Source of the DNA: Chromera velia
Lineage: Eukaryota; Sar; Chromeraceae
Reading direction: 5' to 3'
DNA: 22,500 nucleotides
NCBI GenBank assembly: GCA_018398765.1
Contig: JAHBMJ010000030.1
Span: 1-22,500, forward strand
The position numbers and the translations under genes are program-made. A model generated the notes under the pieces. It was not told where the DNA came from and searched no databases. It saw only the letters and a program-made list of their open reading frames with translations. Below, in pieces: positions 1-20,950 of this stretch. Each line of letters opens with the position of its first letter. The stretch's first letter is position 1.

Positions 1-1440
1 CTTTGTAGACAGAGAAGGGCAGGACCCCTCTCTCTGTACCTCTTCATTCTTTGTAGACAGAGAAGGGCAGGACCCTCTCTCTGTACATCTTCATTCTTTG
101 CAGACAGAGGAGGGCAGGACCCCTCTCTGTGTACATTCTTCTTCTTTGCAGACAGAGAAGGGCAGGACCCCTCTCTCTGTACATTCTTCTTCTTTGCAGA
201 CAGAGAAGGGCAGGACCCCTCTCTCTGAACATCTTCTTCTTTGCAGACAGAGAAGGGCAGGACCCCTCTCTCTGCACATCTTTCTTCTTTGCAGACAGAG
301 AAGGGCAGGACCCCTCTCTCTGTACATCTTTCTTCTTTGCAGACAGAGAAGGGCAGGACCCCTCTCTCTGTATATCTTTCTTCTTTGCAGACAGAGAAGG
401 GCAGGACCCTCTCTCTGTATATCTTTCTTCTTCGCAGACAGAGAAGGGCAGGACCCTCTCTCTGTACATCTTTCTTCTTTGCAGACAGAGAAGGGCAGGA
501 CCCCTCTCTCTGTACATCGTTCTTCTGTGCAGACAGAGAAGGGCAGGGACCCATCTCTCTGTACATCTTCTTCTTTGCAGACAGAGAAGGGCAGGACCCC
601 TCTCTCTGTACATCTTTCTTCTTTGCAGACAGAGAAGGGCAGGACCCTCTCTCTGTACATCTTTCCTCTGTGCAGACAGAGAAGGGCAGGACCCGTCTCT
701 CTGTACATCTTTTTTCTTTGCAGATAGAGAAGGGCAGGACCCCTCTTTGCAGACAGAGAAGGGCAGAAAGTCTGACCCCTCTCTCTGTATATCTTTCTTC
801 TTTACAGACAGAGAAGGGCAGAAGACCTCTCTCTGTACATCTTTCTTCTTTGCAGACAGAGAAGGGCAGGACCCCTCTCTCTGTACATCTTTCTTCTTTG
901 CAGACAGAGAAGGGCAGGACCCTCTCTCTGTACACCTTTCTTCTTTGTAGACAGAGAAGGGTAGGACCCCTCTCTCTGTACATCTTTCTTCTTTGCAGAC
1001 AGAGAAGGGCAGGACCCTCTCTCTGTACATCTTTCTTCTTTTCAGACAGAGAAGGGCAGAGACCCCTCTCTTTGTGCAGCTTCATTCTTTGCAGACAGAG
1101 AAGGGCAGGACCCCTCTCTCTGCATATCTTTCTTCGTTGCAGACAGAGAAGGGCAGGACCCTCTCTCTGTACATCTTTCTTCTTTGCAGACAGAGAAGAG
1201 CAGAGACCCGTCTCTCTGTACATCTTTCTTCTTTGCAGATAGAGAAGGGCAGAGACCCCTCTCTGTACATCTTCATTTGCAGACAGAGAAGGGCAGAGAC
1301 ACTTCTCTCTGTACATCTTTCTTTTTGCAGACAGAGAAGAGCAGAGACCCCTCTCTCTGTACATCTTTCTTCTTTGCAGACAGAAAAGGGCAGGACCCTC
1401 TCTCTGTACACCTTTCTTCTTTGTAGACAGAGAAGGGTAA
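1..1440. repeat. Minisatellite, about 30 copies of a ~48-bp unit
   Basis: A tandem array fills the left edge and probably continues beyond it. The usual period is 48 bp (for example GCAGACAG at 243, 291 and 339), with shorter variants and some truncated units, as near 740-770. Each unit holds ACAGAGAAGGGC, a short loop and CCCCTCTCTCTGT, which can pair into a hairpin, followed by a pyrimidine-rich stretch ending TTTCTTCTTTGCAG that resembles a 3' splice site. Because the period is a multiple of three and stops are rare, long reading frames occur in several frames on both strands. I treat these as composition artefacts, not genes. Confidence 0.95.
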
Positions 1441-1456
1441 AACCCCTGTCTCTAGG

Positions 1457-8783: not shown

Positions 8784-11523
8784 TCAAAGCTCTCGACGAG
8801 CCGAATTCAACAGAGCCTGCCTGCTGGTGCGACGGATGGAATCGCAAACGTTCGATGTGGATCTGTTCAACACGGGGCCCGGGGATCTAGAAGGAGTCAC
8901 TGCATTGTGGTGGGTGTGTGTTGCTAACAGGACTTGTTTCGAAATTCGCTGCTCCGACTTGACTCTTTCCAACAACTCCCGCAATTTCTGCATCGTCAGA
9001 GGCTTGGCAAGAAAGTCGTTCATGCCCGCCTCCGATGCCAAAGCAACATACTCTTCTGACCAAGAAGCAGAGACCCCAAAAATGAAAATGGGATTTCCCC
9101 CTTCTTCCTCATCTTCATCTTCCTCCTCCACCCTCAGTCCTCTTTCTTTCTGCAACCCCCTGATTTGTCGAGTGGCCTCCATCCCGTCCATCTGGGGCAT
9201 ATGCACATCCATCAAAATGACCAATCTGTCCCCCTTCTCCCACCTCAAAGTACCCAAGTCCAGCAATTCCGTTGTCCTGTTCACAGCCTGCAGTCCATTC
9301 TCTGCAAAGTCCGCCTCTCTAGAAAGCCCTAATTGGTGTATCATTGTCCCCGCAACCATGCGATTAATTTCAGTGTCGTCCACTACCAGCATGTGAATTT
9401 CGGGCGTGTCCTCCTGGTCCATTGACCGCAGACACCCCCGTGGCCGCACGGGACTGCTGCGCGTCTGCTGGCTGAGGGCAATGCTGGCGGAACGACTGCG
9501 GGAGGACTGCTGAGGAGGGGAATACGGTTTGGGGGAGTCTGCTGTGGGGTGCTGCTGTTGCTTGTCCGCAGAGAAAGATACGCGCCGCCCACTATGCGAA
9601 GAACGCCTTCCTGTGCCAGATGCAGCGAGCGCCGCAGCGCCTACTTTTGAATCTTTCTCAGGCTGTCCCTCAGAAGAGACGCCCCTGCCCCCGTCCCCTT
9701 CCCCTTCCCCTCGGGGGAAATGACGACAACTCCCCCCATGCCGCAACTCTGCTCTTGCTCTTCCCCCCGCAGCAGCAGCACTGCCCCCAAGTACACGCAG
9801 AGGGGCTCCGTTCTCTCTGCCCTCCTCCCTCACGCACTCACGCTCTCCTACCTCGTTCACTTGGTGAGAAGGACGTTTGTGGCTGCTGCTGTGAGTTTTG
9901 TCAGAAGACCTCGGGTGAAGCAGCCATAGCCTCCACATTGTCCGCAAGTCGGACAGCTGCCCCCGTCCTCTGACGGATCCTTTTCTAGGCTGGGGGGGGG
10001 CAGACGCTGCCTCGGGTTGCAGCACAGGCATGGGCATTGAAGCGGCTGTTTGTTCTTCTCTTTTGCCTTCTTGTCCTTGTGCTGTTGGAATGGCGCGACG
10101 TGTGCTTGCTGTCTGTTGGTAGAAGGTCACACCGATTGCACTGCGGGATCTGGTGCCCGCTCTCGCTGTTGGGCACTGAGCATTCAAAACAGCCTGTGCC
10201 TCCTCTTGAGCAAGCGAGAGATGATCCACGAGGACAAACAAAGAGGAAAAGTTGACAGGAAGGGCAAGGGAGCCGACCATTGCGAATTCTCTGCCGTCAA
10301 ACGGAAAGGGGGGGGCGAGAACGGCGGCGGCATCGGAGAGGACTTTCTCCGAACTTCCGTTTCGCCGTCTCCTTTGAAAGGAGCGACGGCAGGTGAGTGT
10401 GCCACGCTCCTCCTGTACCAAATCAGGAGACACAGCCCCCTGCTCCTGCGAAGAGCCGCACGGGGCGTCCCCCCTGGCGGACTCCCCAGTAGAGGTTGCG
10501 GGCGGAGACGTTCTGCAATTGACTGCCAACAACGCTCGCAGTTCTGCAATGTGTGTGAGGGGGGCAAGGAGAAGCGCGGGCGCGCAACGCATTTTGTCGG
10601 GCGACAGGCCTGTAGCCAATCTCGCCTCGTCCCACAAATCCCCCAACCTCTCTCCCAGTGTGTCAAGACTCAGACTTGAAAAGTCCTCTGCAGACAATTG
10701 ACCAACAACAAACAGGGGAATAAACGAACCCCCTCCGCTATGAATTCGTTGTGACACTCCGCCCTGGACAGAGGCAGATTTGCACCTACTCCACTGCTCA
10801 TCCAGGGCACTCAACTGAATGCCTAGTTTTCCAAGGGCACATTGGAGAGTGCTCGTGGTCCATGGGTCGAGGTTCTTAGTCAAGACTGAAGACTTAACTC
10901 CACAGGCGGACATCCGAATGGGTCCGGGACCCCAGGCCGATTTGGTCACGGGTGTGACGGGGAGAAAGAGGGAGAACCGAGAGCCGACTCCCGGTTCCGA
11001 TTCACAGGAGACCCCCCCTTTTAATGTCCTCGCGATGTTCTTTGCAATCGCAAGCCCCAGGCCTGCCCCGCCATACTCACGTGTCTTTCCAAAGTCAACC
11101 TGCATACATGCAACAAAGAGAAAAGAGATGATGAACCACTTCATGCATGCCTGTTTTCACGCGCCTCTTTACTCGAGGTCCGTCTGCGTGTGCAGGGAAG
11201 GGAATGACCGCGGAAAGGAATGCAGGTCGTGACATGATCAATGCACATGCATGTTGGCGAAGAAACCAACCGCATGGATGTATTTGTATGTATGGATGGG
11301 TGGAAGGATGCCGCAATCTGGTTGGATGGATGGAAGGACTGCCGACTGATAGCATAGCGAGTAGAAGAGGGCAGAAAAAATTCGATCAGATTTCCTTTCT
11401 TGAGAGACAGGAGGTTAGACTGAAGACTCGGGAGAAAGGAAGGAAAAAGAGAGGCTTCAAAAAAGAAGGAAGGAAGGAAGGAAGGAAGGAAAGAAAGAAA
11501 GAAAGAAAGAGAGACAGACAGAA

Positions 11524-11554
<31 letters not shown>

Positions 11555-11648
11555 AAGAAAGAAAGACAGAAAGACAGAAAGAAAGAAAGAAAGAAAGAAA
11601 GAAAGGAAGAAAGAAAGAAAGAAAGGAAGAAAGAAAGAAAGAAAGAAA

Positions 11649-11689
<41 letters not shown>

Positions 11690-13590
11690 GAGAAAAGAAG
11701 AAAATCCAGAAAGGAGAAGTAGACAAAGGAATGAGCGAAGGAAGGAAACAAGGAATGGATGAATGAATGAATGAATGAATGAATGAATGATCGATCAATT
11801 AATGAGCACATGATTGATAGAGTGAAAAAAGGAAGGACGGAAAGAAGGCAGGGAGAATTAAGAGAGAAAAAGGTCGACTGATGTACTGACTTGAAGGAAG
11901 TCATCAAAAACAGAGTTCACGTGAGTGTGCGGAATGCCCATTCCAGTGTCTTCCACTGTAATTCTCATCGAGATATTCTCTTGCTTGCCGTCCCACACCA
12001 GAGTGTGATAGCCTGCATGCTCACATATACACATGCACGCATATACAGAGAGATACATGCACACCTGAATGAAGATGCACAATTACTTTTTGGATTTCGA
12101 AGCAAAGGAAGAAAGAAGAGAGAGTCAAGCGAAGAGGCAGAGGAAGTCGCGGTGTGAAAGCAGAGAGAGAGAGACTCCAGCGACAAAGGCTTCAGATTCA
12201 TTCATATCGATCGATCGATTGAGCAAAAAAACACCCGCCGTCATTGGCTTTCCTTAATTCTTGGAAGAATGCGGGCGGGCTTCGCGTCCTGTCAATCGGC
12301 CTTCCCTTCCTGTCTGCGTTCGTGCCTGCCTGCGTGCCTGCCTGTCTGCATGCGATGGAGGCAACATTCCCGCAATAGCCTGTTGAATAAAGGAAAGGCG
12401 CAGGCAGATGATTTGATTGACTGACTGTGTTGCATAGGATTGCTGGGTGAGTTGATGTCTCCGAGTTCGACCGGTGGATCTTCCAGTGTCCCGACGAGAC
12501 GCGGTCTGTTGGAGGGGCTCTCTTCCAGGCAGATCAATCGGATGCCCCCTGTCTCGGTGAATTTGACCGCATTGGCCAACAGAACTACCACGGCCTGCAT
12601 CAACAACTGGCGGTCCACCAGAACTTTTCGGGGCAGATGCCGTGCCACTTCGAGGGAGATGGGAAGATTCTTTTTGTATGCCTGCGCAGCCACCATGTCA
12701 ATGCAAGACTGTAGGAGTACAACAAGATCAGTCTCAACCAGCGTTACTCCCTGGGCCCCCGTGCTCATCCTGGAAAGTTGTAAAGTGTTTTCAACCAGAC
12801 GTAAAAGCTCACCTCCCGATGCTGCAATTGTCTGTATACACTCCTGCTGCTCTGCTGAAGGGCCCATTTGCTCGAGCACTTCACACATGCCGAGAATACC
12901 ATTGAGGGGGGTGCGCATTTCGTGCGACACATTGGCCATGAAGGTGCCTCTTTGGAGCTGCATCTGCGAGTGCAACTCATGAGCCCTATGGGAACAAATA
13001 CAAACGGCACAGGTGGTCAGGAAAGGCTCAAGAGCCTTGACGTGAGACTGAGCGTAACCGCCCGGCCTGTTGGCAAAGGCTGCCATGCCAATGAACTCTC
13101 CCTTAAAAAATATGGGAATGCCAATATAAGCAATCACATCAGGATGTCCAGGAGGAGCTCTGTACTTCCCCCCCCTTCTCTTGTCCTTTCTCGCATCGTC
13201 AGAAATGATAACTTCTTTTGAACTAAGGACCAGGCCCAACAATGAATCCAAATTTCGAAATTCACCCCCACGAGAAAGAAACGCCTTCGATTTCTCATTC
13301 CATGACACATCGGAAAGTGCATGGGTGAGAAGATAGGGATCTCGTGTCACCTCATCCTGTTTGATCTCGTCTATCAGACCGAACTTACTCCTGGTTAGAA
13401 GAACCAACTGTTCCAGCAAACCGTTCAGCACTTCTGCAAGCGTGTGGTTGCTGGAAATTGCTTGATGAGCTTTCGTGATGGCAGAAAGGAGTTGTTTTTC
13501 CGCACTGCTACTACCGTCCAGAAGGTCATTTTGGGCGCAGATGGAGGAGCTGCCGCTGCTACTGCTGCTGCTTTCCGATTGGTCGGCCAT
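8784..13590 (-). CDS. Soluble GAF-domain hybrid sensor histidine kinase with C-terminal receiver
   Basis: Exons 13590-12426, 12012-11891 and 11099-8784 give 1200 aa. Donors are A|GTCAGT (phase 1) and CAA|GTCAGT (phase 0); acceptors are GCATGCAG and GTATGCAG. The phases agree and rebuild the ATPase motifs across both junctions. A GAF fold lies at about 35-200. The HisKA H-box SHEMRTPLNG carries the phosphorylated His223. HATPase motifs are the N-box around Asn340 (LLANAVKFT), the G1 box EDTGMGIP at 409-416, the F-box near 423-427, and the G2 box GGAGLGLA at 439-446. The receiver starts near 996, with acidic Asp1003 and Asp1004, phosphoacceptor Asp1060 in LMDVHMPQMDG, Ser1106 and Lys1128. It has no signal peptide or membrane span, so it is probably cytosolic: ATP-dependent autophosphorylation on His, then transfer to Asp1060. 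The GAF ligand is unknown. About 500 residues of low-complexity sequence separate ATPase and receiver, unusually long. No phosphotransfer domain is present, so a separate one is expected. Confidence 0.92.
11461..11692. repeat. GAAA/GGAA/GACA polypurine microsatellite in kinase intron 2
   Basis: More than 200 bp of purine-rich tetranucleotides (GGAA, GAAA, GACA) lie wholly inside the 791-nt intron 11100-11890. In the kinase pre-mRNA this reads as a long pyrimidine tract of CTTT type, far upstream of the acceptor at 11100. Long Lys/Arg or Phe/Ser frames across it are artefacts. Confidence 0.95.
11757..11790. repeat. (GAAT)n microsatellite
   Basis: About eight GAAT units in the same kinase intron, followed by GATCGATCAATTAATGAG. 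Confidence 0.9.
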
Positions 13591-14330: not shown

Positions 14331-17300
14331 ATGAGGCTTTTCTTAGTACTGGGGTGTCTGATTGCGCATTCAGTGCTGAAAGGTGGGTCTCATGCATTGT
14401 CAAATGAAGCTGCACTTTTCACGGCAATTGCGAACTCAGTTTCAATCTGCTCGTATCCTTTGTGTGTTCGTGCAGGGTCTGTGTGTGTGAACAGCAGTTC
14501 TGAGGATCTGGGGGTCAGTTTGCGTTTCTTTGGAGACACGTGCTTATTTGGAATGCTTGCCGGCTTGCAGGGGAGATACAGTGTACATGAGTGTATGTAT
14601 GCTTTTCACTTGCAGTTGGCCAAACGCGAGGAGACGGAGACTGCCCTTCTGGTCCAGTCTCTCAACACCTCTCCAGCGTCTCCCATCTCCACCGACTCCG
14701 AGGATAGAGATGCTTCTGAATACGAAGAAGAGTGGGTGGATGGAGAAGGAGAGGAGGAGACAGACTGGGAGGAATGGGGAGACGGAGACTGGGAAGAGGA
14801 GGAAGGTGAAGAGGATTTGTGGGAGAAGAAGATAGAAACAGAAGGAGGAGATGGGTGGGAAGAGGATGATGAAGCGATGGAGGAAGAGGAGGTTGTTGTC
14901 CCAACGGAAGAAGAAGAGGAAACTTCACGATCCTCAGGAGGGAACGGGACTGAGGGACCGCCCCTTCCCCCCTCTGCGACCCTCTTGGAAGAGAAGGTGA
15001 TGTTGTTGGGGGTCGAGGGGGAAGAGGAACACGAATGGGTAGAGGATGACAGCGACCTGAACCTGTCTATCTATGGACATGAAGAAGAAGACCAGGAAGA
15101 AAGCGAATTCGAAGATGAAGACCAGGAAGAAGACCAGGAAGATGAAGAAGAAGAGGAACAGGACGAAGAGACACAGACGCAGTCGGAGGAGGAAGAAGGG
15201 AAGCTGTCGTTGGAAGCGTCAAGTGTCTCCCTTGTCTCTGTCTCCAGCAACTCGACAGCTCTTCAGTCGTTGTCGGGTGGCTTCCCTCCTCATTCCCCTC
15301 TCCCCTCTCCCAGAAATTCTGTCTCTGTTTCTGACAATCATCTGATCTCAACTGTCTCTGTCTCTCTCTCAGACGACAACCTTTCGTCTCAGATGGGTGC
15401 CTCAGATCATGTCGATAGACGTCAACTACAAAGAGGCAGGGGGAGAGGGGGGGGAGGAGCCCGTCGGGGCGGCGGCGGTGGCATGAGGCGTGGCAGTGGA
15501 GGGGGGAGGCGCCCAGGGGGAGGTGCACGCAGACCCCCGGCAAGGCGCCCAGGGGGAGGGGCACGTAGACCCCCGGCAAGGCGGCCAGGGGGTGGAGGGA
15601 GGCGCCCACCTGCTAGACGGCCTGGTGGCGGCGGCAGGCGCCCACCCCCAAGACGGCCGGGCGGCGGCGGCAAGGGAAGGCGCCCACCTGCTAGACGGCC
15701 TGGTGGCGGTGGAAAGGGAAGGCGCCCACCTGCTAGACGGCCTGGAGGCGGCGGCATGCGCCCACCCCCAAGACGGCCGGTCGGCGGCGGCAAGGGAAGG
15801 CGCCCACCTGCTAGACGGCCGGGCGGCGGCGGCAAGGGAAGGCGACCACCTGCTAGACGGCCTGGTGGCGGCGGCAGGGGTCCAGGCGGCCCTCTCAGAG
15901 GGCCTGGAGGGGGAGGGAAGGGGCGGCGCCCCGGCGGAGGCCGCCCCCCTGCCCGAGGAGGAGGGAAGGGGCGGCGCCCTGGTGGAGGCCGTCCCCCTGC
16001 CCGAGGAGGAGGGAAGGGGCGGCGCCCTGGTGGAGGACCCCCCGTCCGACGAGGAGGGGGTAAGGGAGGAAGGTTCGGTGCTGTTGGTCGTGGTGGAAAC
16101 GGAGGAAGGTTCGGTGCTGTTGGTCGTGGAGGAAAGGGAGGAAGGTTCGGTGCTGTTGGTCGTGGTGGAAAGGGAGGTCGCCGTGGCTTTGGCGGTGGCA
16201 AGGGAGGAAGGTTCGGTGCTGTTGGTCGTGGTGGAAAGGGAGGAAAGGGAGGTCGCCGTGGCTTTGGCGGTGGCAAGGGAGGAAGGTTCGGTGCTGTTGG
16301 TCGTGGTGGAAACGGAGGAAGGTTCGGTGCTGTTGGTCGTGGAGGAAAGGGAGGAAGGTTCGGTGCTGTTGTTGGTCGTGGTGGAAAGGGAGGAAAGGGA
16401 GGTCGCCGTGGCTTTGGCGGTGGCAAGGGAGGAAGGTTCGGTGCTGTTGGTCGTGGTGGAAAGGGAGGAAAGGGAGGTCGCCGTGGCTTTGGCGGTGGCA
16501 AGGGAGGAAGGTTCGGTGCTGTTGGTCGTGGTGGAAAGGGAGGAAAGGGAGGTCGCCGTGGCTTTGGCGGTGGCAAGGGGGGTCTCCGTGGTCGTGGAGG
16601 CCGGGGAGGGGGGAGATTCGGCGGTGGACGGCGGTTTGGTCGTGGAGGGCGTTTCCGCAGAGGAGGGTTGGGGGTTGGCAGAGGGGGTGGACGTGGAAGA
16701 GGAAGAGGAAGGGGGCGGTGGGGACGGTATGGGCGTGGCCGGGGCGGATTCGGTCGCTGGGGGGGGCCCTGGGGAGGTGGTGGCATCTGGGGAGGTGAGC
16801 AGCTCGTTTTCTTTCATCACCGCTTCTGTTTTTTTCCTATGTTCGTCTCTTTGGTTGAAACCATCTGTTAATATGCTGGGGTGAGTTTCGTGGATGCTTC
16901 TCGGTTGGTGACGTGCTTGTCTCCCTTGCTCTCAATAACCTTTCAGTCTTCCCTAGGTGTCTGTCGTTGTACGAAGGTTTTTGTGCTCTGGGTGTGTGGA
17001 CATCGATATGTCTCGCTTCTTGTGTGCAGGCGGCGGCTTCTACGGGGGTGGCGGTTTCTTTGGAGGCGGCTTCTGTGAGTCGTATCTTTTTTTCTCTTCG
17101 TTCTGTTGTTGATTTTGTCTTTCTTTCCCTCCTTCGGTCGGTCGGCCGGTCGGAAGTCTGCAGCAGGGCTCTGATTTGTCTGTTTCTCTTTCTTCCTCCG
17201 GCCTGTCTTTCCCATATTTTGATCCTTACTTTCCTTTTCTCCGGCTGATTTCAGGAATTCAGACGGAACCATGTCTGTTTTTCATCCTGCCTGAAAAGGA

Positions 17301-18076
17301 AAACTCACAATTTATTCCTCACTACTTCTGGATTATTGTCTGTCTGTCAGTCTGCCTCCCGGATTGAGTCCTTCGTTTGCTTCTCTCTCTAATTGAGTGG
17401 GGGGTGGCTGCATGTGCGTGCAGATGGGTACGGAGGGTACGGATTTGGAGGGGGATTCGGCGGTTTGGGCGGCTGGGGAGGAGGGTGGGGCGCCTACACA
17501 GCCGGACTCCTCACGGGCGCCCTCATCGGTGGAGGGGGGTGGGGGTACGGATGGGGGTATGGGGGGGGGTACTACGGTGGATATGGCGGTTACGGAGGGG
17601 GGTACTCTGTGCATCTATTTCCGTTTCCTCTAGTCTTGCGTGCCATCTTCTTTAGTTCCTTTCCGGCTGTTTTCATGGAAGGAAGACAGGAAGGGAGGGA
17701 AAAAGAAAGAAGGAAGGAAGGAAGAAGGGAAGGAGGAGGAAAAGGAGGGAGGGAGGGAGGGAGGGAGGGAGGAAGGAAGGAAGGAAGAAAAGGAGGGAGG
17801 AAGAAAGGAAGAAGCGAAGGAAGCTGACCCGACGGACATGCAGGGACAGGGGGGGGGACATTGATTTGCTCATCCCTTCTTATCTTCTTCTATCTTATCT
17901 AGTGTATGTGACTAGGGCTGACACACACACATACACACACACACTTTAGCTTTCTTTTTTGAATTGCCGAAGGGGCTGTAGGGCTCTTTCTTGGCTGTGT
18001 TATCAACAGCAGCAGAACGGACGGTCCTCGCGAGGAAGGGAGGGAGGAAGGGAGACGGGTGGACACGCAAAGCACG

Positions 18077-18113
<37 letters not shown>

Positions 18114-20349
18114 ACAGACAGTTAAGCGCACACGGTGACCGCACTTCAACTGCTCACTTGCCTGTCTGACTATCTGTCTGTCTGTCTGTCTGTCTGTCTG
18201 TGTGCAGGGTACGATTACGGGTACAGCGGTTACAGGTATGGATCCTATTATGGTGCTGTTGGCTGCGGTGAGTGCTCTGCTCTTTTCTGTTGCTCTCTCT
18301 CTCTCTCTCTCTCTCTCTGTGCGTGTGTGTGTGTGCGTGTGTGCGTGTGTGTGCGTGTGTCTATCTCTGTTTCTGTCTCTGTTCTATCTGCGTCTGTCTC
18401 TCTCTGTTTCTCTGACTTAAACGAAGAGACGCATGAACGCGCGCAGGAACAAAGGTATGCGTGAATGAATAAATGCGTGCATGCAGGATACGGAGGGGGA
18501 TACTACGGTTCCCAAATCTACCCAACGACAGTCATCAACACCTACACATCCTTCCCCGTTGCCTCCTCCCTCTGTTACCAAGACTGCTACTACCAGGGAT
18601 TTGAGGGGTCAGTCTGCGATCCGCTGTCTCTTCGCTTTTCGTCTGTCCACCTATGTACCTATACCTGCCTTCTTTGCTTTTTTGATTGAATTGCAGTCCT
18701 CACCTTGAAATGAATGACTTGTCCCATGCATTCTCTGTTTTCTTGACAACGTTTTTGAACCCGATGGTTTCCTACCCGACTGCCCTCCCCCCTGGTGCAG
18801 GTACTACGGCGGCACTGCAGGGTCTTTTTTTTCATACAGAATAAATAAATAAATACAATAAGAATTCTGTATGAAAATAAATACGTGCAGGTACTACGGC
18901 GGCACTGCAGGGTATTACACGTGAGTCGGGCCTGAATTAATTTCTTCCCTCTGGCTCTATCGGATGACTGGTCTACCCGTCCTTCCTTTCTTCTTCCTTC
19001 CTCTTTCTTTCTCTTTGTCTTTCCTGCAATTTATTTGTCCCCCCCCCGTTGCCTCCAGGCACTTCAACCTGCACCCCATCTTTCCCGCCACCCACCTACG
19101 CTGCTCTTCCTCTTAGAATCCTTCCTACTCTCCTTCCTCCTTCCCTTCCATTTCTCGTGCTTCAACTCCTGATAGCTCTTTCTGTTTTCCGTCGTGGTCG
19201 GAAGGAATGTCACAAGAAGTAGGTAGGCCCACCTCGATGATGTTTGCATTCCTTCCGCTCTTCTGTCCTTTCTTCTTATACGTTCTCGTTAATTGTCTCT
19301 CTCTCTTTTCACGCAGGCCCGTGTACTACAAGGAACAAGCCGGGTTGCCCTACTCTCCCCCAGTCGACACGACCGTCAGCGTTGTTGTTGAGGACCAACC
19401 TCAGGCCGCAAACGCATACGATGGCCCTGTGGTAGTCGTTGTGGAGGCACCAGGAGGGACCCGGTCCGAGGTCGCTGTTCCTATCGCGCCCCCTGCGGCA
19501 CTCTCTGAGAACGAGGCCCCGGCAGACCCTGCAGACTTCTGTCCCTGTCAGAATCCGGGAGATCCCCATTTCCCCTGTCCTGCCGACATGCCTGAAGGCT
19601 GGTGTGCCGAGAACGCGCCTGCCGAATTTGAGGCCGTGTGCCCCTGTCAGAATACCGGAGACGCCAACTATCCGTGTCCCGATGACATGCCTGAGGGATG
19701 GTGTGAGGCCAACGCAGAGGCAGACCCCGAAGACTTCTGCCCCTGTCAAAATCCCGACGACGAACATCACCCCTGTCCGGATGACATGCCAGAGAACTGG
19801 TGTCAAGAGAACACACCCGTCGACCCTGCAGACTTCTGCCCCTGTCAAAACACAGGAGACGTCCATCACCCCTGTCCCGATGACATGCCAGACGGATGGT
19901 GCGAAGAGAATTTCCAGCCTCTGCCCCCTGTGACAGAGTCCCCACTGGACGAAGGCACGACCCCTGTGTATGAAGACGTGTGCCCCTGTCAAAATACCGG
20001 AGACGCCCATCACCCGTGTCCCTCCGACATGCCCGAGAATTGGTGCCTTGACAACGCACCCCCTGACCCTGCCGATTACTGCCCCTGCCAGAACACAGGC
20101 GACGCCCACTACCCTTGCCCGGAGGACATGCCGGACAGATGGTGTGAGGACAACTTCCAGGCTCCCCCCGTAACGGCGGTCCAGCAGCCGGCAGACCCTG
20201 CAGAGTTCTGTCCGTGCGAACGTCCCGGAGACAGACACTACCCGTGCCCCACAGACATGCCAGATGGCTGGTGTGCGCAGGCAGAGGGGGGGGGCGCTGG
20301 AGGGGTTCGTCAACTGGCTACGGCGGTGTGGAATATGTTTTTCTCTTGA
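14331..20349 (+). CDS. Secreted charge-block protein: acidic, RGG/Pro, Gly-Tyr and Cys-repeat domains (about 10 exons)
   Basis: Proposed exons: 14331-14382, 14476-14513, 14616-16794, 17030-17074, 17424-17576 (or 17588), 18208-18267, 18487-18607, 18801-18821, 18891-18920 and 19317-20349, giving about 1243 aa. Most donors are GTGAGT, GTCAGT, GTGGGT or GTGAGC; most acceptors end TGCAG. Phases agree throughout, except that the exon 5 donor is uncertain: two phase-compatible GT sites, both off consensus. Order of domains: signal peptide MRLFLVLGCLIAHSVLKG; acidic Glu/Asp/Trp region (about 31-240) then Ser-rich stretch; Arg-Gly-Pro repeats (about 300-756); Gly/Tyr/Phe segment (about 757-870); linker; seven four-cysteine repeats (975-1219); short tail. 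Introns 1 and 2 (93 and 102 nt) are open and multiples of three, so they might instead be exonic. No homologue is recognised. A cell-surface, wall, adhesive or mineral-binding structural role is inference from composition. RGG repeats usually mark RNA-binding proteins, but the signal peptide and cysteines argue for secretion. Confidence 0.75.
15420..16794 (+). repeat. Coding repeats of the Arg-Gly-Pro domain
   Basis: Within exon 3 three repeat types follow one another. First are about nine RRPPARRPGGG-like units (15475-15890). Next come three KGRRPGGGRPPAR-like units (15910-16060). Last are nine RFGAVGRGG units interleaved with five RRGFGGGKGG units (16065-16580). The DNA repeats are nearly identical near the 3' end, indicating recent expansion or homogenisation. 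All periods are multiples of three and stop-free, which leaves two minus frames and a second plus frame open for over 450 codons. I treat those as shadows. Confidence 0.9.
17677..17821. repeat. GGAA/GGGA polypurine tract in intron 5
   Basis: A purine-only low-complexity tract inside the 631-nt (or 619-nt) intron upstream of the exon at 18208. Frames through it are not coding. Confidence 0.9.
18080..18204. repeat. (CA)n and (TCTG)n microsatellites in intron 5
   Basis: A CA run at 18080-18110 and a TCTG run at about 18173-18201 lie in the intron. The TCTG run directly precedes the acceptor TGTGCAG at 18207 and may serve as its pyrimidine tract. Confidence 0.9.
18293..18362. repeat. (TC)n then (TG)n microsatellite in intron 6
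   Basis: TC repeats change to GTGTGTGCGTGTG repeats shortly after the GTGAGT donor at 18268. Confidence 0.9.
18795..18913 (+). mobile_element. 61-bp hairpin insertion flanked by a perfect 29-bp direct repeat (candidate new intron)
   Basis: The 29 bp at 18795-18823 (GTGCAG then GTACTACGGCGG and on) recur exactly at 18885-18913. Between them lies a 61-bp AT-rich segment with a T-run, AAATA repeats and perfect inverted arms TTTCATACAGAAT and ATTCTGTATGAAA. Each repeat carries an acceptor GTGCAG plus the start of a coding exon. Splicing from GG|GTCTTT (18822) to the second acceptor (18890) would remove a 69-nt intron and keep the frame, giving a duplicated YYGGTAG segment. Alternatively the first copy is skipped and one intron spans 18608-18890; that also keeps the frame. 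Confidence 0.7.
19540..20274 (+). repeat. Seven coding copies of a four-cysteine repeat
   Basis: Each copy fits C-P-C-[QE]-x7-P-C-P-x-D-M-P-x2-W-C, that is C-x-C-x9-C-x8-C, with invariant DMP and WC. Spacing from copy to copy is 33 aa, except after copies 4 and 6, where a longer linker begins with EENFQPLPPVT or EDNFQAPPVT. This suggests the array grew as blocks ending in that linker. The 28 cysteines and many Asp, Glu and His residues could form disulfides or bind metal; neither is shown. Confidence 0.95.
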
Positions 20350-20950
20350 AAAGAAGGGAGGACGGATGGGGTGATAGGAGGGAGATCTTGGGAGTGGAAT
20401 TAAAGGAAGGAAATTGAATGGGGGGGGTGGGGTAATGCATTCATTCCATTCCGCCGATGGATGCGTCTTCAGTTGTTTACGACTCGACTCCATGGAGCCT
20501 TTGCTGCACATTTTGTTGTTGTTCTTTCATGTTCTTTCGTCAGTGCGTATCTGAGTAAATTCATGCGGAGGGAGGGACGGCTTGCTGTCGCCGCGCGACC
20601 TCTGTCCCTCCTCTCCCCTCCGTGTGTGTGTGGTTCTCTTCTCTCTGCCTACCCTCCTGCCTGCCTGCCTGTCTGAGTGATCCTCCGACATACTCGCGCC
20701 TCCCTCCCTCCCTCCAATTTGTCCCCCTCCGTGCGAGTCCTGAGGGCTCTCTTGACGACACACAACGCTTTGGTACTGAAGAAGGAATCACCTGACAGAC
20801 ATGCAGACTTTTTCGATTCTCCTTTTCCGTCATTTATGAATGACGGCAGAATGCAATGGACACTCCCGGCCCTGCATGGAGGCGTCTGTCTGCATCCATC
20901 CCAACGTCTCCCTTCCTTTCTGGAATCTGCACATTCCTTCCGGATCATTC
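20350..20950. other. 3' flank of the secreted-protein gene, no further gene seen
   Basis: GA-rich then CT-rich low-complexity DNA. No polyadenylation hexamer is evident soon after the stop, though AATTAAAGG lies at about 20398. A frame starting at 20461 has a hydrophobic stretch but no supported continuation. Confidence 0.45.

What the first reader, a model, noticed from the sequence alone, without database searches (positions are those of the whole stretch)
14331..20349. A secreted four-block protein with an unrecognised Cys-repeat family
Two long reading frames 2.4 kb apart join through small exons with matching phases, one donor excepted. The product combines a signal peptide, an acidic Glu/Trp block, an Arg-Gly-Pro block, a Gly/Tyr block and seven C-x-C-x9-C-x8-C repeats. 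I know of no family with this repeat or architecture. Opposite-charge blocks plus cross-linkable Tyr and Cys suggest an extracellular structural, adhesive or mineral-associated material; that role is inference.
Basis: partly seen in the sequence, partly recalled or inferred. Interest (0 to 1): 0.82.

Follow-up and report, generated by a model that had tools for sequence, protein, structure and literature searches.

The report
Secreted block protein of chromerid alga
A photosynthetic relative of malaria parasites carries a pair of genes for an unusual secreted-type protein built of acidic, arginine-rich, tyrosine-rich and cysteine-repeat blocks, probably a self-crosslinking coat or wall material made as a larger precursor and then trimmed.

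Summary
Window 14331-20349 is one nine-exon gene (A) for a ~1,236-aa protein: hydrophobic signal-like start, Glu/Trp acidic block (net -81), Arg/Gly/Pro block (+130), Gly/Tyr block, seven C-x-C-x9-C-x8-C repeats. The deciding evidence is a paralogue (B) on the opposite strand of the same contig: six of nine exons equal in length, introns only 47-60% identical, dN/dS 0.10-0.19 over three exon groups. Two tracts (acidic core; end of repeat 1 to repeat 4) are almost free of synonymous change, read as gene conversion. The genome is a chromerid alga, very probably Chromera velia. The repeat matched no Pfam, NCBIfam, PDB, viral or prokaryote entry and was found only in A and B. New here: in all sequence readable, each protein has two R-x-L sites, at the acidic-to-basic junction and before a hydrophobic C-terminal tail, as in the acidic-domain/RXL layout of diatom silaffin precursors. 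I read it as a pro-matrix protein whose acidic block masks the basic block until cleavage, followed by Tyr and Cys cross-linking outside the cell. Processing, location and cross-linking are inferred. Interesting and apparently lineage-restricted; not a new kind of system.

The parts
14331..14382 (+). Exon 1: start codon and hydrophobic signal-peptide-like start (52 nt, ends phase 1)
   Evidence: Same length and phase in gene B though only 7 of 30 residues of the first two exons agree; best 12-residue mean hydropathy 2.33 (A) and 2.82 (B)
14476..14513 (+). Exon 2, 38 nt, ends phase 0
   Evidence: 38 nt also in B
14616..15428 (+). Acidic Glu/Trp block, residues 31-301, net charge -81, ending in the R-Q-L site at 15420-15428
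   Evidence: low-divergence tract about 14650-15080, dS 0.03 over 142 codons
15429..16794 (+). Arg/Gly/Pro then Arg/Gly/Phe repeat block, net about +130; tandem DNA repeats; end of exon 3
   Evidence: not compared with the short N-interrupted block in B
17030..17074 (+). Exon 4 (45 nt), start of the Gly/Tyr block
   Evidence: 45 nt in B; E4-E5 dS 1.40, dN/dS 0.10
17424..17576 (+). Exon 5, Gly/Tyr/Trp; donor GTGGAT at 17577 is weak
   Evidence: In-phase candidates scored; B's exon 5 is 195 nt
18208..18267 (+). Exon 6 (60 nt), Gly/Tyr
   Evidence: 60 nt in B
18487..18607 (+). Exon 7 (121 nt), Gly/Tyr then a stretch with two Cys
   Evidence: 121 nt in B
18891..18920 (+). Exon 8 (30 nt)
   Evidence: 30 nt in B; a copy of its first 23 bases with the splice acceptor lies upstream at 18795-18823 next to a short palindromic insertion
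19317..19539 (+). Exon 9, Val/Pro-rich linker
   Evidence: 42 of 75 aa identical to B, dS 1.98, dN/dS 0.19
19540..20274 (+). Seven 22-residue C-x-C-x9-C-x8-C repeats (19540-19605, 19639-19704, 19738-19803, 19837-19902, 19981-20046, 20080-20145, 20209-20274)
   Evidence: C, P, C, D, P, C, M, P, W, C invariant over the 13 distinct repeats of A and B
20308..20349 (+). Second R-Q-L site (20308-20316), C-terminal tail ATAVWNMFFS and stop
   Evidence: B has RRL then STAAWNLFFS
20562..20636 (+). Hairpin downstream of the stop, also downstream of gene B
   Evidence: 93% identical in B with no other match at E<=0.001 in the genome; folding z -3.2 (A) and -4.2 (B)

Best explanation
A and B encode secreted pro-matrix proteins of a chromerid alga. 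After the signal peptide is removed, the acidic block (about -81) masks the strongly basic Arg/Gly/Pro block (about +130), so that the precursor is close to neutral (-12) and stays soluble in the secretory pathway. A protease recognising R-x-L cuts at the acidic/basic junction (and probably before the last ten residues), freeing a basic mature chain (+69, 38 Tyr, 31 Cys) that assembles by binding acidic wall polymers and is set by disulfides of the Cys repeats and possibly Tyr-Tyr links, giving an insoluble wall, cyst or sheath layer. Shown: gene structure by comparison, duplication, purifying selection, tracts best read as gene conversion, positions of the R-x-L sites, block charges. Inferred: secretion, cleavage, solubility role, cross-linking, wall location.
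For: Paralogue with matching exons and dN/dS 0.10-0.19. Hydrophobic N-termini kept despite 7 of 30 identical residues. Two R-x-L in A (residues 299, 1224) and two in the readable parts of B at the same places: RQL/RQL in A, RRL/RRL in B; the first lies inside RR(Q)LQRG, in a stretch where only 39 of 100 residues agree and synonymous sites are saturated. Charges. All N-glycosylation sequons (6 in A, 3 in B) lie before the first R-x-L. Cys repeats with fixed C/P/D/M/W. The diatom silaffin precursor Sil1p has signal peptide, acidic domain of unknown function, basic repeats and RXL motifs proposed as protease sites (PMC4557024, passages). Coccidian oocyst walls contain cross-linked Tyr-rich and Cys-rich proteins (abstract starts of PMC4776368 and PMC4514997).
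Against: No transcript, proteomic or localisation data, and no trained signal-peptide predictor was on hand. R-x-L is short: shuffling the acidic block plus 20 residues puts one in a 14-residue stretch at that place in 3.5% of cases. The second R-x-L lies in a stretch with low dS (0.31), so its conservation is not independent. The unread part of B at the N could hold more such sites. Silaffins are not shown to be homologous. AlphaFold2 gave no confident fold for the repeats (mean pLDDT 44.6 and 61.8). In the acidic core dN/dS is about 1.5 on few changes, so its exact sequence seems hardly constrained.
Confidence: 0.45

Rival explanations
1. Same secreted protein, not cleaved: the acidic and basic blocks stay in one chain and condense with each other (coacervation), giving a mucilage, glue or sheath.
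For: Near-neutral whole chain with opposite blocks; Gly/Tyr block.
Against: R-x-L kept at the junction in both paralogues.
Confidence: 0.2
2. Content protein of a secretory or extrusive organelle (such as the chromerosome, a name recalled), processed from an acidic pro-form and discharged.
For: Signal-peptide-like start and pro-segment-like acidic block; acidic pro-forms of extrusome proteins are recalled knowledge.
Against: Nothing here separates it from a wall protein; a Gly/Tyr plus Arg/Gly scaffold fits a covering layer at least as well (inference).
Confidence: 0.15
3. Extracellular metal-binding or redox protein: the repeat offers C-x-C, His, Met, Asp and two further Cys as ligands.
For: In the 28-column repeat alignment His-13 is nearly invariant, Met-20 and Asp-11 invariant.
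Against: Invariant Trp and Pro suggest a folded disulfide unit (inference); the other blocks stay unexplained.
Confidence: 0.08
4. Intracellular nucleolin/GAR-like RNA-binding protein (acidic stretch plus RGG-type block).
For: Acidic plus Arg/Gly-rich composition.
Against: Hydrophobic N-terminus kept in both copies, 33 Cys, no Pfam family over its cut-off in exon 3, the Gly/Tyr part or the C-terminal part.
Confidence: 0.05
5. Two neighbouring genes or a decayed gene rather than one working gene.
For: Weak exon 5 donor in A; frame shift at the N in B.
Against: B keeps the small exons between the two long ones, with dN/dS 0.10-0.15.
Confidence: 0.04

Closest known systems
Diatom silaffin precursor Sil1p (and cingulins)
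   Same: Signal peptide, acidic N-terminal domain, R-x-L, strongly basic repetitive part; cingulins add Trp/Tyr-rich regions (PMC4557024 passages). Four KXXK occur in A (all KGGK).
   Different: Basic block here has 106 Arg to 24 Lys; Cys repeats and Gly/Tyr block added; no sign of silica; different lineage; homology not shown. In Sil1p the review places an RXL behind the signal sequence and RRIL/RRNL at repeat ends.
Coccidian oocyst/sporocyst wall proteins (Tyr-rich proteins and Cys-rich COWP/OWP)
   Same: Apicomplexan relatives whose walls hold cross-linked Tyr-rich and Cys-rich secreted proteins (abstract starts). OWP arrays are reported in Vitrella (PMC4501334).
   Different: Here Tyr-rich and Cys-rich parts are in one chain with an acidic and an Arg/Gly block. 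The Cys spacings were not compared by any search.
CPW-WPC domain (PF09717)
   Same: Small Cys/Trp/Pro-rich domain, reported in apicomplexans and chromerids (PMC4501334).
   Different: Model of 59 positions; 14 matches in this genome, none in A or B; no Pfam match to A's repeats.
Two-cysteine tandem domain known only in Chromera velia (e.g. Cvel_967; PMC4501334 Supplementary file 5 footnote d)
   Same: Lineage-specific tandem Cys domain in a table of extracellular proteins.
   Different: Described as two cysteines; the repeat here has four. Its sequence was not seen, so identity is undecided.

Membership tests
Silaffin-type precursor | Signal peptide | tested here: met
   Hydrophobic N-terminus in both paralogues by hydropathy only
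Silaffin-type precursor | Acidic N-terminal domain before a basic repetitive part | tested here: met
   Net -81 then +130
Silaffin-type precursor | R-x-L motif usable as a processing site | tested here: inconclusive
   RQL (A) and RRL (B) at the acidic/basic junction; cleavage itself not testable here
Silaffin-type precursor | Lys clusters in the basic repeats | tested here: not met
   106 Arg to 24 Lys in the basic block; only four KXXK
Silaffin-type precursor | Bound to silica | not testable with these tools
   Needs biochemistry
CPW-WPC (PF09717) | Match to the family model | tested here: not met
COWP/OWP | OWP-type Cys spacing | not tested
   No OWP model was run; the generic Pfam scan gave no match to the C-terminal part
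Tyr-rich cross-linked wall protein | Dityrosine in the mature protein | not testable with these tools
   38 Tyr in the predicted mature chain
Any Pfam or NCBIfam family for the Cys repeat | Match above the curated cut-off | tested here: not met
   Real C-terminal sequence: no Pfam family at E<=10; a typed two-repeat composite gave MBT at E=1, 10.1 bits against a cut-off of 22. NCBIfam: rib_alpha E=0.034, below cut-off and outside the repeats

The most novel reading that the evidence does not exclude
A Cys-repeat domain restricted to Chromera or its near kin sits in a secreted protein that arrived, independently of diatoms, at the silaffin layout: an acidic pro-segment that masks a polycationic block and is cut off at R-x-L. 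The charge-masking pro-segment and the R-x-L protease step would then be shared by two algal wall-building systems, and the Tyr plus Cys chemistry would foreshadow coccidian oocyst walls inside a single chain.
Probability: 0.3. Interest if true: 0.62.

Novelty: new variant of a known kind. Interest (0 to 1): 0.45.

Why it matters
Chromerids are photosynthetic cousins of parasites whose oocyst walls make them durable. My searches for Chromera wall proteins found no paper describing one (none; 8 of 350 seen, none on Chromera; 20 of 64 seen as a listing, none opened), so this is a limited look. A defined protein pair with candidate cleavage sites, cross-linkable residues and a unique repeat gives a direct handle (antibody, mass spectrometry) on how such coats are built and whether the parasite wall chemistry predates parasitism.

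Tried and rejected
AlphaFold2 on a 130-residue stretch with four repeats alone (mean pLDDT 44.6) and on two repeats with a nine-row alignment (61.8): too weak, so no fold search was run. The repeat profile in GTDB species genomes and in viral contigs: 24 and 22 pattern stretches, none confirmed by tblastn. PDB by sequence: none at E<=10 for the 344-residue C-terminal part; two weak hits (E about 1) for the repeat profile. Pfam on the Gly/Tyr part with the linker: none at E<=10. Pfam on exon 3: five families, all below their cut-offs, best PI3K_1B_p101 at E 0.012. Literature searches with no paper. The PDB matches of a light-harvesting protein did not name a species; the first seven rows were long multi-domain LHCI chains of one entry, followed by others and FCP chains. 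The 18S rRNA search did not complete, so the species rests on the points in the report.

Full report
What organism. The window is contig C30 (58,715 bp) of a 177.8-Mb assembly of 4,040 contigs. It has many light-harvesting genes (58 matches to PF00504; one control genome, a cyanobacterium, also rang), one of whose products matches LHCI and fucoxanthin-chlorophyll antenna chains. There are 11 matches to the alveolin model PF12314, a weak sign because the bacterial control Caulobacter also rang; 14 matches to CPW-WPC, which rang in none of 14 controls and is reported in chromerids (PMC4501334); and an alpha-tubulin whose two best PDB matches are 7tnt and 7miz (that these are Toxoplasma structures is recalled). 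A photosynthetic alga with apicomplexan affinity is a chromerid. Published sizes are 193.66 Mb in 5,953 scaffolds for Chromera velia and 72.7 Mb for Vitrella (PMC4501334, passages), so Chromera velia is very probable, though not proved.

Gene structure. The reading frames join through nine exons. The deciding evidence is a second copy, gene B, on the opposite strand of the same contig at about 51.66-56.65 kb, so the two genes converge across about 31 kb, in which a kinesin-domain exon was seen. Exons 1, 2, 4, 6, 7 and 8 are equal in length in A and B. Exon 5 differs (195 nt in B; 153 nt in A if the weak GTGGAT donor at 17577 is used), and so does exon 9 (1,033 and 1,114 nt). Exon 3 of B cannot be measured because it holds an N in the basic block. 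The eight introns are 47-60% identical in pairwise alignments; the 200 bases before the start codon give 45%.

Selection and gene conversion. Between A and B, E4-E5 has dS 1.40 and dN/dS 0.10, E6-E8 dS 0.47 and 0.15, the E9 linker dS 1.98 and 0.19: an old duplication with both copies constrained as proteins. Against this, the acidic core (142 codons) has dS 0.03, and the stretch from the end of Cys repeat 1 to just past repeat 4 has dS 0.07 with 113 of 114 residues equal; repeat 1 as a whole has dS 0.50, the spacer with repeat 5 0.81, the last repeat with the tail 0.31. Sliding identity rises from about 0.6 to 1.0 and falls back within some tens of bases at about 19560-19890; it is high, with dips near 14690 and 14890, over about 14650-15080; smaller high patches lie near 19960-20010, 20200-20260 and 20550-20600. 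Among codons for identical amino acids, the longest runs of identical codons (45 in the 378 of E4-E9, 84 in the 176 up to the first R-x-L) were reached in 0 of 5,000 shuffles each; the longest shuffled runs were 41 and 61. Gene conversion between the inverted copies is the simplest reading. In the acidic core the differences are mostly amino-acid changes (14.5 against 2.5 synonymous), which fits a block held by composition rather than exact sequence; in the Cys tract one amino-acid change was seen.

How restricted it is. In the own genome, the 280-residue Cys region found 3 matches, all in A and B; the Gly/Tyr-linker region 8 matches, four each in A and B; the acidic core 2, A and B; exon 3 as DNA found B at 694 bits and otherwise pieces at 87 bits or less within the acidic-repeat stretch. 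The C-P-x-x-M-P-x-x-W-C DNA pattern gave 15 matches, 14 in A and B, 1 elsewhere, 0 in the reversed control. No family reached its cut-off in Pfam for exon 3, the Gly/Tyr part or the C-terminal part, nor in NCBIfam for the C-terminal part. PDB had nothing credible for the C-terminal part or the repeat profile, and the repeat profile found no relative in GTDB or viral contigs. No eukaryote collection was on hand, so presence in Vitrella or other chromerids is untested.

The new clue: R-x-L. A contains two R-x-L tripeptides, and the readable parts of B contain two, at the same two places. The first (RQL 299-301 in A, RRL in B) sits at the acidic-to-basic junction, inside RR(Q)LQRG, in a stretch where only 39 of 100 residues agree and synonymous sites are saturated. 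The second (RQL 1224-1226, RRL in B) precedes a ten-residue hydrophobic tail; that region has low dS, so its conservation counts for less. In diatoms the silaffin precursor Sil1p has signal peptide, an acidic domain of unknown function, a basic repetitive part, and RXL motifs proposed as cleavage sites (PMC4557024, passages). Here the block charges are -81 and +130, the whole chain -12, and the chain between the two sites +69 with 38 Tyr and 31 Cys. All N-glycosylation sequons, 6 in A and 3 in B, lie before the first R-x-L. I therefore propose a charge-masking pro-segment removed by an R-x-L protease, leaving a basic, Tyr- and Cys-rich matrix protein. Layout is shown; cleavage, secretion and cross-linking are inferred. 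It is like a silaffin precursor in layout, but it is not filed as one: its basic block is Arg/Gly/Pro, not Lys clusters.

Other features. A 75-base hairpin downstream of both genes is 93% identical between them, has no other match at E<=0.001 in the genome and folds better than all 200 shuffles in each copy (z -3.2 and -4.2); it may be a 3' untranslated element, or another conversion patch. Exon 8 of A carries a short palindromic insertion that goes with a duplication of its splice acceptor and 23 bases of exon; B shows one copy of that exon. The insertion belongs to a dispersed family described under Noticed in passing.

Papers. PMC4501334: passages found by terms, and section 30 read in full. 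PMC4557024 and PMC9860276: passages found by terms. All others: search listings and abstract starts only.

Noticed in passing
window 18795-18913; copies at 27 other loci (L042-L048, L054-L073): A palindromic element of roughly 55-100 bp (ends like TTTATTTTCATACAGAATTC...GAATTCTGTATGAAAATAAATGCATGCA) is dispersed in the genome: 37 match rows on 28 contigs. Of the 28 loci examined, one per contig, 25 carry flanking locus-specific direct duplications of 20 bp or more (24-78 as measured, median 44; some lengths include part of the element). Exceptions: L057 and L068 (none) and L063 (18). Controls: 0 of 10 same-locus positions, but 6 of 60 random window positions under a laxer rule, the window being rich in tandem repeats. 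Introners with such signatures have 3-9 bp duplications (PMC9860276 passages). Some loci hold tandem units of flank plus element. Perhaps an insertion with very long target-site duplications, or a palindrome-linked duplication process; one search on it (10 of 115 papers seen as a listing) showed no such report for Chromera.
   Followed up: partly
window 18795-18920: Here that insertion lies inside exon 8 and the 3' splice site is duplicated with it, so an intact exon 8 is kept downstream and the insertion can fall into intron 7: an exon insertion that may be made harmless by its own duplication.
   Followed up: partly
window about 14650-15080 and 19560-19890; L012 (gene B): Tracts of near-zero synonymous divergence between two convergent paralogues about 31 kb apart, best read as gene conversion, covering mainly the acidic core and Cys repeats 1-4.
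   Followed up: yes
window 20562-20636; L012 1434-1510 (minus): Conserved stable hairpin downstream of both genes, with no other match in the genome at E<=0.001.
   Followed up: partly
window 8787-13590 (minus): Hybrid histidine kinase: GAF and HisKA in one open frame, HATPase_c and response-regulator domains in the next; apicomplexans lack such two-component kinases as far as I recall.
   Followed up: partly
window 1-1453: Tandem array of a 48-bp unit, about 31 copies, 88% matches, open over long stretches in several frames; probably a minisatellite.
   Followed up: no
L012, exon 3 of gene B: A single N interrupts the basic block of gene B and the frame shifts there, which suggests a collapsed repeat or assembly gap rather than a broken gene.
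   Followed up: no
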